A stretch of DNA of 64,000 nt. Source: Romanomermis culicivorax (Eukaryota > Nematoda > Enoplea > Mermithida > Mermithidae). Under the pieces are notes generated by a model. It was not told the origin of the DNA. It ran no database searches and saw only the letters and a program-made list of their open reading frames with translations. Positions within the stretch are counted from its first letter, which is position 1; each line of letters begins with the position of its first letter. The translations under genes were made by a program, and so were the position numbers. The DNA lies in NCBI GenBank assembly GCA_963922205.1, contig CAWUHX010000034.1:620001-684000 (forward strand), written 5' to 3'. Positions 2,695-7,122 of the stretch are shown here, piece by piece.

Positions 2695-5421
2695 TCAGTT
2701 ACCTCCTCGAGGTCTACCTCGATAGTATTCCCTCTGGCCGGGTTGGCCTCGGGTCTGACCTCCATCCTGGCCTTGATTTTGGCCTTGTTGGCTTCCACCC
2801 CATCTACCTAGCGGCATGAAATTCGGATTGTGGAACTGTGCATCCGGGTCTTGACCTTGGTGTTGCCAGGTTCCTCGGCCTCTGAAGGGTCGCTGAGGGC
2901 GCCCTCTGAAGCCTCCTCTGGGTTGACCTTGGTCATACCCCGGTCTACCCCTGTACGGGGCTGGGTTTGAGAACATATCGTCTCTCCCCTGCTGCCTTTG
3001 TATTGGACCACTGCTAGTGGAGCTGCTGCGCTGAGGTTTTTGAGTCCCGAAAGTTGAGTTAAGAGATTTTGATGATGTTGATTTTGATCGAGAAAGCGGA
3101 CTTTTATAAGAAGTGCTAGCAGCTTCACTATACGACCTCTGGCTGGTCGCAGTAGATGATTGTTGCATCATCGGCGGTTGTTTCTTAGCCGGAGGGAGTC
3201 TAGGCACTTTAAACTTACTTGGGCTCTTGGCAGCTGTTCGCTGATATTTATCAGCTTGCGACCTGTCATCGCCTGGTGCCTTCCTCTTAACACCCATCTG
3301 GTTTAACCTTTGCAAGCCCATAAAGATATATTGATTAAAGGCTGAAATGTAGACATCGTCTACGCGGTTTCCCTGGGCCTCAACGACTAGTTGTCTGTTC
3401 GCAAACGAACACGCCTGGGCATACCACCTACCAATTGCCGTTGGCGTGATCGGAGCGAAGTCCAACTGTAGAAAGATCATTAGGGTCACATACCTAATGG
3501 CCGTAAAGACGTCTGAGGCATCGTAGTCCTGAAGCCATCTGGGGATAAGAATTAAAATGATCCATTCCCAGATTTCCTCAGGGATGCGCTCTCCGTCAAA
3601 CATAAATCCACCTTGCATTTCAAATTGTTGGCGGTAATTTTCATGAATTTCGGCCATGGCATCATTGACCATTTTATAGATGATCGGCCGTTCTTGGCGG
3701 TCAAAGGTGAAATAATTGGCGACCTCTGGATTTTCGAATGAGATCGGCCCAATTAAGCGCCTTTGTTCCCGTTGCCACTCCCAATAATCAATGAGAGTTT
3801 CAGCTAATTGACCAGGAGTGACAAACTGCTGTGGCTCCCTTTTGGGTCTATTAACTACCACATTCAGTTTGACCTTCTTGATCAACTTTTCCTCCGATTC
3901 AAGATCGGGCTTCACCAATACGCTTCCTGCAGGTTTACTACTTCTTGCGGTATAGCTGGAGGGCACGGATTTGCTCTTGGCAGATGAAGTACTAACCTCT
4001 CCGCCGGTTTCCGATACCGTTCGCGTCTGAGTGTACGAAACAGTTGCAGTGGACCCTGTTGTCCTATCCGATTTCGTCTGGCCTTTGGAGGTCTCCGTTC
4101 GCGTCTGACTCTTTGCAGTCTCCGTCCTCGTCTGACTTTTCGTAGTCTCCGTTCTCGACTTTTGACTCGTCGGATATTGTGGGGTCGTGGTCTCCTCGGC
4201 CATATCGTAGGCGTCATTTTCAGATCCGGTGGCGGCCGCTCCTTGTTGCTGCTGACTTTGAGCTGCAAATCTGCGTTGTCTGGCCTTACCTATCCTTTTC
4301 CTGCGCCTTACTTTTTCCCTGGCCAAGTGTCGGATAAATTTTTCCGACATACCTTCAGCTAACATCTGCTGAACCTTATCTGGGGAATAGACTCCAGGAA
4401 TTCCTTCCTCGGCAATTCTTCCCCTCTTCATCAGCTCTGTTGCTGCAATAGCTGAATCTGAGCTGTCATCGGCTAATGCCTGCTCCTTCAGCTTCCTCTG
4501 AATTGCCCTCTGACGCAGGAATTCCTGCTGCATCAGCCTTTTTTGTTCTTGGATTTTGGCCTGTAGGGCCTCGTGCTTTGCTTGTCTGTCGTGATCCTTA
4601 GGATCTTTGGCCTTCACAGGTATCCCCTGGGATGCTTCCTGCATCTTTTCCAGTCTGACATCAATTCCCGACATCTTAGTCACTGCTTCATCAATTTGAG
4701 TCTGGATTTTCTCCTCCTCAATAGCCTGTTTCTGAGTCTTGGCCTCCATCGCATCCTTATTTTCTGATGTCTGGCCCTCAGATTCCAGAATTTCACCTTC
4801 CTCTTCTTCTTCAACATCCTCCTCTGAACTGGACTCAGAGTCTGAATTTCGTATCTTCGGCAAGAGCTGTTTTACTTTAGCTGGTAACACAGCTGGTGCC
4901 GGAGGTACCGATTGCATAATGGTGACAACCTCTGGCTCAGGCTCGGCCGGTTGCTGTATCTGAGTTACTTGAGTCGGCTGTGCCACCGCTGGTTGCGTTG
5001 GCGGGGGCACCACGACTACTACTGCAGCTGCTTGCGTAGCAGCAGTGTCCAAAGCTGGTTGTGTAGCTTTGACCACTGGCGCTGGCGCTTGCGGCTGCGT
5101 TTTAACTTGTCCCGTCCCTCCGGCTTGCGCCGTTCGGGAAGTAGAGGGACGATTTAATGGTACTTTTGATACCAACTCACCCGCTGGGGTATAGGTTAGC
5201 GTATACCCAGGCCTCTCTGAAGCAATCGTTCTCTCCCGGAAGCTTTTGGTAACAAACTCCGGTCTGAGCTCGCGCGGATTTCTCGGTGTGTACGTAATCG
5301 GATAATCGGTCGGCGATGCGTCTTCCGTCATCGGATACCGCAGTCCCGGCGTCAAAGTCTCGAAGCCTACATAGTAAAAAGTTACATAAAAGTAAGGGTC
5401 CGAATCGATTCTGCCACGCAT
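2695..5421 (-). CDS. Retroelement ORF3, linker + conserved domain + RG-rich tail (E1)
   Basis: 908 codons. In order: residues ~1-60 are the end of the conserved exonuclease-side region (YYVTFYYVGF); ~60-180 Pro/Gln/Ala-rich; ~187-225 strongly acidic (SDSESSSEEDVEEEEEGE); ~225-335 Lys/Glu/Gln-rich predicted coiled coil; ~340-392 the IPGVYSPDKVQQML segment and a basic run; ~400-500 Ser/Thr/Arg repeats; ~513-707 a conserved folded domain (LIDYWEWQREQ, IGPISFENPEVANYF, FEMQGGFMFDGERIPEEIW) found in all four copies; ~800-908 Arg/Gly-rich with RGG and GRG motifs typical of RNA binding. In F this region is continuous with the upstream exonuclease frame. In E1 a deletion of about 90 bases near 5407 separates them, so the ATG at 5421 is probably internal. 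Function unknown; RNA binding is inferred from the tail. Confidence 0.75.
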   Translation of the reverse strand: MRGRIDSDPYFYVTFYYVGFETLTPGLRYPMTEDASPTDYPITYTPRNPRELRPEFVTKSFRERTIASERPGYTLTYTPAGELVSKVPLNRPSTSRTAQAGGTGQVKTQPQAPAPVVKATQPALDTAATQAAAVVVVVPPPTQPAVAQPTQVTQIQQPAEPEPEVVTIMQSVPPAPAVLPAKVKQLLPKIRNSDSESSSEEDVEEEEEGEILESEGQTSENKDAMEAKTQKQAIEEEKIQTQIDEAVTKMSGIDVRLEKMQEASQGIPVKAKDPKDHDRQAKHEALQAKIQEQKRLMQQEFLRQRAIQRKLKEQALADDSSDSAIAATELMKRGRIAEEGIPGVYSPDKVQQMLAEGMSEKFIRHLAREKVRRRKRIGKARQRRFAAQSQQQQGAAATGSENDAYDMAEETTTPQYPTSQKSRTETTKSQTRTETAKSQTRTETSKGQTKSDRTTGSTATVSYTQTRTVSETGGEVSTSSAKSKSVPSSYTARSSKPAGSVLVKPDLESEEKLIKKVKLNVVVNRPKREPQQFVTPGQLAETLIDYWEWQREQRRLIGPISFENPEVANYFTFDRQERPIIYKMVNDAMAEIHENYRQQFEMQGGFMFDGERIPEEIWEWIILILIPRWLQDYDASDVFTAIRYVTLMIFLQLDFAPITPTAIGRWYAQACSFANRQLVVEAQGNRVDDVYISAFNQYIFMGLQRLNQMGVKRKAPGDDRSQADKYQRTAAKSPSKFKVPRLPPAKKQPPMMQQSSTATSQRSYSEAASTSYKSPLSRSKSTSSKSLNSTFGTQKPQRSSSTSSGPIQRQQGRDDMFSNPAPYRGRPGYDQGQPRGGFRGRPQRPFRGRGTWQHQGQDPDAQFHNPNFMPLGRWGGSQQGQNQGQDGGQTRGQPGQREYYRGRPRGGN

Positions 5422-6787: not shown

Positions 6788-7122
6788 TTATTTGAGCATC
6801 ATCGAAGTCGTATCAATAACGTAGGTTTGACCGTTTGTTAACGCGAAGCTCACGTATCGGGCAAATTGCTTCCCCATCGGATTGTCGACCCCTCTCGTTT
6901 TAAACAAGGCGGCGACTTTATCCTGGTTAACTTTTTTGACATCGAATCCATAAACTGGCTGTCCTCTGAAGATTGATACTTCTCGGATAAAGTGGAGTAT
7001 CTGGCTGACTTTCCCGATGTCTACCAATTTTGGTTCCTTGGGATTAGCCGGCCAGTACCCAAATGTGGCTTTAAACCACTGATCCAGTTCATGGATTCGC
7101 ACAGCCCTTTTGACATTATAAT
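6788..7122 (-). CDS. Retroelement ORF3, exonuclease N-terminus with motif I (E1)
   Basis: Homology with F and H begins at sense DYNVKRAVRIHELDQWF, directly after TTTAG (acceptor at 7123-7124), so the true start is probably a spliced exon; an ATG-initiated reading frame would begin at 7186. VYGFDVKKV holds motif I, but the second acidic residue is Lys (DVK), whereas F has DVE. QFARYVSFALTNGQTYVID fits the next two strands of the RNase D fold. The frame ends at a TAA, after which the domain continues in the next ORF. E1's exonuclease is therefore doubly damaged: stop codon and lost motif I Glu. Confidence 0.72.

What the first reader, a model, noticed from the sequence alone, without database searches (positions are those of the whole stretch)
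2695..7122. LTR retrotransposon lineage carrying a DEDDy 3'-5' exonuclease in a giant third ORF
Seen: after integrase, four copies (E1, F, G, H) encode a protein with GFD-V-E, a VLEDL-type second motif and YAALDAYYSLL in the order and spacing of the RNase D/WRN/EXD exonuclease family (DNA_pol_A_exo1). In F the exonuclease part is in one frame with a long acidic/coiled-coil linker; a conserved domain and an RG-rich tail follow collinearly, about 1,500 residues in all. Known: Ty3/Gypsy third ORFs are normally env-like; I know of no described family with this exonuclease. Inference: a captured cellular exonuclease used for RNA 3'-end processing, countering small-RNA silencing (compare Nibbler, EXD1), RNA transport (compare Egalitarian) or replication quality control.
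Basis: partly seen in the sequence, partly recalled or inferred. Interest (0 to 1): 0.92.

Follow-up and report, generated by a model that had tools for sequence, protein, structure and literature searches.

The report
Nematode retrotransposons encoding a 3'-5' exonuclease
Jumping genes of a mosquito-parasitic nematode carry, after their usual enzymes, a large extra gene containing a nucleic-acid-trimming exonuclease that selection has kept; similar extra genes were already known from rotifers, but here the gene is larger, apparently spliced and clearly constrained.

Summary
The window is Romanomermis culicivorax-like (mermithid nematode) DNA, not arthropod. The core observation holds. Ty3-type LTR elements here carry a roughly 1,500-codon third gene after integrase with a DEDDy 3'-5' exonuclease domain, acidic linker, conserved C-terminal domain and RG-rich tail. 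Single pieces miss Pfam PF01612, but a profile of pieces matches DEDDy exonucleases over the whole domain (46-48; at most 23 in 200 shuffles). A related element in the same genome (L029) scores PF01612 above cut-off in one frame and is clearly homologous. The genome has at least 80 PF01612 matches; 19 of the 20 strongest lie downstream of an integrase. The exonuclease is under purifying selection (dN/dS 0.06-0.10), and splice sites are conserved. The novelty claim fails: Rodriguez et al. 2017 described DEDDy ORF3s in bdelloid rotifer LTR elements. New here: nematode host, giant gene with an intron, strong constraint, several lineages. Most likely role: an RNA-bound 3'-end exonuclease acting on the element's own or silencing RNAs, expressed from a spliced mRNA as CERV is in C. 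elegans Cer1. Function is inferred, not shown.

The parts
7805..7925 (-). F element ORF3 exon 1 (ATG, 40 codons plus 1 nt; MGKGARN...FFFID, donor G|GTAAGT)
   Evidence: UniRef model P0037 joins the equivalent exon to DYN
7705..7761 (-). F possible cassette exon (GNAQKSLEDQL...KGR), phase-compatible, flanked by CAG and GTTAGA
   Evidence: equivalent stretch in UniRef models P0008 and P0022
7123..7804 (-). F ORF3 intron region (682 nt including cassette exon), unusually conserved between F and H
2695..7122 (-). F ORF3 exon 3 (1475 codons): exonuclease, middle region, acidic linker, conserved C-terminal domain, RG-rich tail; broken by one in-frame stop and one frameshift
6308..7122 (-). F DEDDy exonuclease domain (motif I in 6791-7122, motifs II and III in 6308-6787)
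3283..3876 (-). F conserved C-terminal domain, shared with H, G and E1
2698..3282 (-). F RG/Q-rich tail (14 RG or GR dipeptides in 195 aa)
8353..11565 (-). F pol: RT, RNase H, integrase
   Evidence: Pfam RVT_1, RT_RNaseH, Integrase_H2C2, rve above cut-offs
11505..12123 (-). F 5' LTR (TG...CA), 98.5% identical to the 3' LTR; 4-bp target duplication CTCT
1311..1929 (-). F 3' LTR
36752..42035 (-). H ORF3: exon 1 41915-42035, intron 41229-41914, exon 3 from 41228; F and H DNA 90-92% identical; broken by frameshift and stops
42772..45700 (-). H pol (RT to integrase), in three frames
49368..54041 (-). G (second lineage) ORF3: exon 1 53930-54041, intron 53307-53929, exon 3 from 53306; 28-45% identical to F pieces, decayed
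54576..57817 (-). G pol (54-70% identical to F pol)
61139..62189 (-). G 5' LTR (with about 455 extra bp)
47865..48449 (-). G 3' LTR
2..1310 (+). E1 (third lineage of the window) ORF3 from between motifs II and III to the linker, cut by the F insertion
12124..13440 (+). E1 ORF3 continued: linker, C-terminal domain, tail

Best explanation
Shown: several lineages of Ty3-type LTR retroelements in a Romanomermis culicivorax-like genome carry, after integrase, an element-owned gene whose N-terminal part is a DEDDy (PF01612-type) 3'-5' exonuclease; it is kept by purifying selection about as strongly as pol. In the window lineages it is a roughly 1,500-residue protein with conserved splice signals. 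Inferred: it is translated from a spliced subgenomic mRNA, as CERV is from Cer1 in C. elegans; the RG-rich tail and linker hold it on RNA; and the nuclease trims or degrades RNA 3' ends in the element's RNP - its own transcripts, host mRNA, or the small RNAs aimed at it. My weights for the role: RNA 3'-end trimming or degradation 0.45 (anti-silencing about 0.17 of that), non-catalytic RNA binding or export 0.2, trimming or proofreading of cDNA 3' ends 0.15, other or unknown 0.2.
For: Domain: a profile of 35 pieces against 9 DEDDy exonucleases gives hhalign probability 91-95%, score 47.9 local and 46.2 global, maxima of 200 shuffles 22.7 and 17.2; with a 7-sequence profile 0 of 300 shuffles reach the score; the elements' own RT, RNase H and integrase profiles give no match. 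L029, from an element with RT, RNase H and integrase 44-65% identical to the window's, scores PF01612 33.3 bits, cut-off 23.6, and matches the window profile over motifs I-III, score 89.0 against at most 22.9 in 100 shuffles. Catalytic columns in window-type pieces: D 14/16, E 13/16, D 11/12, Y 9/9, D 7/9 with two E (pieces from 22 of the 55 proteins plus the window). Linkage: 12 of 55 UniRef models join ORF3 with gag or pol; 19 of the 20 strongest PF01612 loci have integrase upstream on the same strand. Constraint, F vs H dN/dS: 0.095 motif I piece, 0.064 motif II-III piece, 0.087 C-terminal domain, 0.154 pol; type B exonuclease median 0.062 over 121 pairs, catalytic D 18/19, E 18/19, D 20/20, Y 19/19, D 19/19. 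Splicing: G|GTAAGT and TTTAG|ATTA at the same phase in F, H and G. Cer1 precedent: PMC10309623.
Against: None of seven single ORF3 pieces (six with exonuclease parts) has a Pfam match above cut-off; the first piece profile finds no exonuclease in the PDB, nor does one piece alone. Family-1 pieces alone fail in global mode (score -0.2) though not in local mode. Profiles of one known subfamily score weakly except mut-7. tblastn of window pieces misses L029 at E 0.01. Every window copy seen is broken and F and G have lost catalytic acids; two more pieces left out of that count also depart (P0021 motif I, P0003 motif III). The 20 type B loci are the best PF01612 scorers, so their intact motifs are partly a choice. 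No structure could be predicted. Splicing rests on sequence signals and automatic gene models, not on RNA reads. RNA as substrate is inferred only from the enzyme family, the RG tail and the precedent.
Confidence: 0.7

Rival explanations
1. Non-catalytic adaptor: the domain is kept for RNA binding and the ORF3 is a CERV/Rev-like factor that carries unspliced genomic RNA out of the nucleus.
For: Splice signals in a nematode Ty3 element, as for CERV; three of 16 motif-I E are K and two D are N in window-type pieces; the intron region is less diverged between F and H than the other non-coding parts compared; Maelstrom and EXD1 are named in PMC5408684 as inactive DEDD derivatives that keep RNA binding.
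Against: Changed residues occur in decayed copies or fragmentary gene models; in type B the catalytic residues stand in 18 of 19 to 20 of 20 rows (best scorers). The intron RNA does not fold better than shuffles (z -0.43). CERV has no exonuclease reported (0 occurrences of the word) and its sequence was not compared.
Confidence: 0.2
2. DNA-side role: trimming or proofreading of cDNA 3' ends before integration, as suggested for Dada exonucleases.
For: DEDDy enzymes include DNA exonucleases (WRN, DNA polymerase A exo domain; recalled and PMC5408684 passages); PMC3706591 proposes processing of 3' ends in transposition; type B matches WRN as well as mut-7.
Against: Separate gene after pol with its own splice signals, and an RG-rich tail; integrase already processes cDNA ends (general knowledge).
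Confidence: 0.15
3. Counter-silencing enzyme that destroys or shortens host small RNAs (mut-7/Nibbler-like).
For: mut-7 is the best single subfamily for the window-type domain (local score 32.7 against 17-23); strong constraint.
Against: The local mut-7 match rests on 27 columns round motif III; no small-RNA data; the 2017 rotifer paper found no unambiguous link between such ORFs and copy number.
Confidence: 0.17
4. A host exonuclease gene that retroelements happen to flank.
For: Single pieces are annotated as ordinary genes in UniRef; L011 and L030 showed no pol upstream.
Against: ORF3 lies inside LTR pairs with integrase 5' of it in F and G; integrase upstream in 19 of 20 genome loci and pol in 3 of 4 more; 12 of 55 models fuse it to gag or pol.
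Confidence: 0.02
5. Env-like function in entry or cell exit.
For: Position after integrase and splice signals; one sub-threshold Pfam match of an H piece to a viral envelope glycoprotein (EAV_GS, E 0.13, 12.3 bits against cut-off 25).
Against: No Pfam envelope family above cut-off in the seven ORF3 pieces scanned; no transmembrane analysis was run.
Confidence: 0.04

Closest known systems
Bdelloid rotifer LTR retrotransposons Juno and Vesta (and Athena Penelope-like elements) with DEDDy ORF3, Rodriguez et al. 2017 (PMC5408684)
   Same: LTR element with gag, pol and an ORF3 after pol that encodes an RNase D-like DEDDy exonuclease; found in unrelated lineages of one genome
   Different: Nematode host; about 1,500 residues with acidic linker, second conserved domain and RG tail (paper: DEDDy ORFs lack coiled-coil and transmembrane domains); clear purifying selection (paper: no significant departure from neutrality); motif residues mostly DEDD here (paper: DEED).
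Cer1 of C. elegans with CERV (PMC10309623)
   Same: Nematode Ty3/Gypsy element; ORF after pol expressed by splicing, with exons sharing the gag frame in CERV and gag-ORF3 joins in some gene models here
   Different: CERV is 517 aa with no exonuclease reported; sequence relation untested
MUT-7/Nibbler, WRN, EXD2, RNase D (PF01612)
   Same: DEDDy motifs in order and spacing
   Different: Cellular enzymes; the window domain is far diverged and embedded in a retroelement protein
Dada DNA transposons with DEDDy domain (PMC3706591)
   Same: Mobile element that encodes a DEDDy exonuclease
   Different: DNA transposon; domain lies inside the transposase

Membership tests
DEDDy 3'-5' exonuclease (PF01612) | Pfam profile above gathering score | tested here: inconclusive
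   Not met by seven single window ORF3 pieces, six with exonuclease parts; met by homologous L029 (33.3 vs 23.6 bits) and by three type B ORFs
DEDDy 3'-5' exonuclease (PF01612) | Homology over the whole domain by profile comparison | tested here: met
   family 1 alone not met in global mode
DEDDy 3'-5' exonuclease (PF01612) | Residues D-x-E, D, Y-x3-D | tested here: met
   Majority in every column, near-invariant in type B; window copies F and G have lost one or more
DEDDy 3'-5' exonuclease (PF01612) | DnaQ-like fold | not testable with these tools
   structure prediction switched off
DEDDy 3'-5' exonuclease (PF01612) | 3'-5' nuclease activity | not testable with these tools
   needs a bench assay
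Ty3/Gypsy LTR retrotransposon | LTRs, target duplication, RT-RNase H-integrase order | tested here: met
   target duplication clear in F and the composite, 3 of 4 bases in G; gag and protease present in G and in the plus-strand part of the composite, missing from F. LTRs of L029 and of type B loci not tested
DEDDy-ORF3 LTR elements of bdelloids (Juno/Vesta) | DEDDy ORF3 after integrase | tested here: met
DEDDy-ORF3 LTR elements of bdelloids (Juno/Vesta) | Sequence clustering with the rotifer retroelement DEDDy pool | not tested
   Rotifer sequences not fetched; three word-based searches returned R. culicivorax only
CERV of Cer1 | Expression from a spliced mRNA with gag-frame exons | tested here: inconclusive
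   Conserved donor and acceptor; gene models P0015, P0045, P0048 and P0022 join gag to ORF3; no RNA reads
CERV of Cer1 | Sequence similarity to CERV | not tested
   CERV sequence not fetched

The most novel reading that the evidence does not exclude
Mermithid Ty3 elements carry a MUT-7/Nibbler-like nuclease on a giant spliced RNA-binding protein, and use it to trim or destroy the host small RNAs that silence them, while a conserved intron and the same protein govern export of unspliced genomic RNA: a transposon-encoded anti-silencing nuclease acquired more than once in one genome.
Probability: 0.13. Interest if true: 0.9.

Novelty: new variant of a known kind. Interest (0 to 1): 0.62.

Why it matters
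DEDDy ORF3s were known from bdelloid rotifers, where their benefit to the element was unclear. Here the same kind of gene is in another phylum and in several element lineages, in a genome with at least 80 PF01612 matches (22 of 24 examined lie behind integrase or pol), with protein sequence held by purifying selection. That turns 'incidental capture' into a testable claim that an exonuclease helps LTR elements replicate or evade silencing. The splice signals parallel CERV, the one nematode Ty3 ORF3 with a shown function that I met in this work.

Tried and rejected
Single-sequence Pfam and PDB searches of window ORF3 pieces: nothing above cut-off. Piece profile against PDB sequences: no exonuclease. 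Viral contigs: two scans with ORF3 pieces, no relative. Prokaryote contigs with the C-terminal domain alignment: none. Conserved intron as a folded RNA element: energy like shuffles. Host gene flanked by elements: rejected. Single origin of window-type and type B exonucleases: left open; window profile vs type B scores 41.0 local (100 shuffles, maximum 23.0) but L029 vs type B is not significant (18.9). pol clade within Ty3 not determined.
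Full report
WHERE IT IS FROM. The 55 proteins returned by three searches are all named Romanomermis culicivorax, a mermithid nematode; two have E above 0.05. The assembly that holds the window has 359,112,060 bases; PMC10879605 (passages) gives 359 Mb for that species' long-read genome. 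The organism is inferred from these two facts.

ANATOMY. F (minus strand) has 619-bp LTRs at 1311-1929 and 11505-12123, 98.5% identical, TG...CA ends and a 4-bp target duplication CTCT. Pol at 8353-11565 has RT, RNase H and integrase by Pfam; gag and protease are missing from F. After integrase comes ORF3. G, a second lineage, runs from its 5' LTR at 62189 to its 3' LTR end at 47865 with gag, protease, pol and ORF3 in order; its pol is 54-70% identical to F's. H pol and ORF3 are 90-92% identical to F in DNA. E1 (plus strand) is a third ORF3 lineage into which F inserted. All share ORF3 parts in the same order, as far as each lies in the window.

ORF3 LOOKS LIKE A SPLICED GENE. Exon 1 (7925-7805) encodes MGKGARN...FFFID and ends G|GTAAGT. 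H (42035-41915, then 41228) and G (54041-53930, then 53306) have the same donor, acceptor and phase, although G is only 28-45% identical to F in ORF3 pieces. F and H also have a phase-compatible cassette exon. UniRef gene models use these sites (P0037, P0008, P0022, P0015), and some join gag to ORF3 (P0015, P0045, P0048, P0022). These are predictions, not RNA reads. F's exon 3 is 1,475 codons long.

THE EXONUCLEASE. Seven single pieces, six with exonuclease parts, gave no Pfam match above cut-off, one piece no PDB match, and the first piece profile no exonuclease in the PDB. Aligning 35 pieces (window copies and 22 of the 55 proteins) and comparing them with solved DEDDy enzymes gave collinear matches at motifs I, II and III. 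Scores: 35.4 local and 28.0 global with a 7-sequence profile, 0 of 300 shuffles as high; 47.9 and 46.2 after two mut-7 chains were added, shuffle maxima 22.7 and 17.2 of 200. Family 2 (G type) alone exceeds 80 of 80 shuffles in both modes; family 1 (F/H type) alone does so locally but fails globally. The elements' own RT, RNase H and integrase profiles do not match. hhalign E-values are for single comparisons, so I rely on the shuffles. The bridging case is L029: an ORF3 exonuclease in one frame behind RT, RNase H and integrase that are 44-65% identical to the window's. It scores PF01612 at 33.3 bits, cut-off 23.6, and the window profile matches it over 220 columns with score 89.0, against at most 22.9 in 100 shuffles. 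Plain tblastn of window pieces misses it at E 0.01.

GENOME-WIDE. A PF01612 search of the assembly gave 80 matches, all over the cut-off. None lies in the window's stretch, so window-type copies are at least partly missed and 80 is a lower bound. Of the 20 strongest, fetched with about 4.5 kb upstream (3.8 kb in L018), 19 have integrase upstream on the same strand; L011 does not. Of four more chosen by hand from the 80, three have pol upstream and L030 does not. The 20 belong to another type, here called type B: L016 has a zinc knuckle, RNase H and an H2C2 integrase stretch just under its cut-off in one 1155-aa frame, then a 608-aa ORF3 with PF01612. RVT_1 was not reported for it. LTRs of type B and of L029 were not examined.

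SELECTION. F vs H dN/dS: 0.095 (motif I piece, 96 codons), 0.064 (motif II-III piece, 150 codons), 0.084 (that plus middle region), 0.087 (C-terminal domain), 0.216 (linker), 0.287 (tail), 0.154 (pol); third positions carry 77 of 108 changes in the motif II-III plus middle part. Type B: median 0.062 (up to 0.295) over 121 pairs in the exonuclease, 0.211 over 99 pairs in linker and C-terminus (18 of 20 loci, L012 and L013 left out as partial; pairs with dS 0.1-1.5). Pairs share ancestry and are not independent. Catalytic residues: window-type D 14/16, E 13/16, D 11/12, Y 9/9, D 7/9; two further pieces not in that alignment also depart (P0021, P0003). Type B: D 18/19, E 18/19, D 20/20, Y 19/19, D 19/19; these loci are the best scorers, so partly selected for intact motifs.

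WHAT IS KNOWN. Rodriguez et al. 2017 (PMC5408684; abstract and 12 passages) reported DEDDy ORF3s in Juno and Vesta LTR elements and in Athena elements of bdelloid rotifers, suggested 3'-end processing of element RNA, considered a mut-7-like silencing role, and saw no significant departure from neutrality. PMC6338049 (passages) cites such domains as known accessories. PMC6431247 (passages) repeats the case for Terminons. PMC3706591 (passages) reports DEDDy domains in Dada transposons of two species. Searches that could have shown a nematode case listed none that I recognised by title and abstract start in an open-access library. CERV of Cer1 (PMC10309623; abstract, passages and one section) is the product of a spliced mRNA and is needed for genomic RNA export.

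MECHANISM. Shown: element-owned, constrained DEDDy domain; splice signals; RG-rich tail. Inferred: spliced expression, RNA binding, catalysis, RNA as substrate. I favour RNA 3'-end action in the element's RNP (0.45 of the weight) over an adaptor or export role (0.2) and a cDNA role (0.15). mut-7 is the best single subfamily for the window type, but the local match spans 27 columns only.

VERDICT. A real and well-supported feature, a new variant of a kind already described in rotifers; function open.

Noticed in passing
31620-46919: Composite element that looks like a product of autointegration with inversion: LTR(+)-gag-protease(+) joined at GATG to an inverted LTR-ORF3-pol, which ends at CATC (reverse complement of GATG) against another LTR(+); the whole is flanked by target duplication GGTT.
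   Followed up: partly
7123-7704: The ORF3 intron differs by only 4.0% between F and H, against 13.6% in the spacer before exon 1, 13.3% in LTRs and 8.0% in the 3' untranslated part; the whole intron region is not significantly different from pol (6.0%); it does not fold better than shuffles. Constraint or recombination cannot be told apart from two copies.
   Followed up: partly
61506-61960: The G 5' LTR holds about 455 extra bp, absent from its 3' LTR, with two 185-bp repeats (94.6% identical) that each contain a tRNA-like stretch (Rfam at 61838-61909 and 61567-61638; ARAGORN tRNA-Tyr at the first).
   Followed up: no
1311-12123: F kept its primer-binding region but lost gag, protease and the segment up to RT, although its LTRs are 98.5% identical and it has a target duplication: a recent, deleted insertion.
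   Followed up: no
30678-31496: Tandem array with a 98-bp unit next to the composite element's LTR.
   Followed up: no
L016:442-3909: Type B pol matches zinc knuckle and RNase H, but no RVT_1 match was reported at E up to 0.1: possibly a very divergent RT.
   Followed up: no
L013, about 6720-7049, opposite strand to its exonuclease: A stretch 26% identical to the window's motif I piece (E 3e-9): a window-type ORF3 fragment beside a type B element.
   Followed up: no
L030:1-4627: Copy of the L029-type exonuclease with one stop and no pol match in about 3 kb upstream: may be a fragment or an orphan.
   Followed up: no
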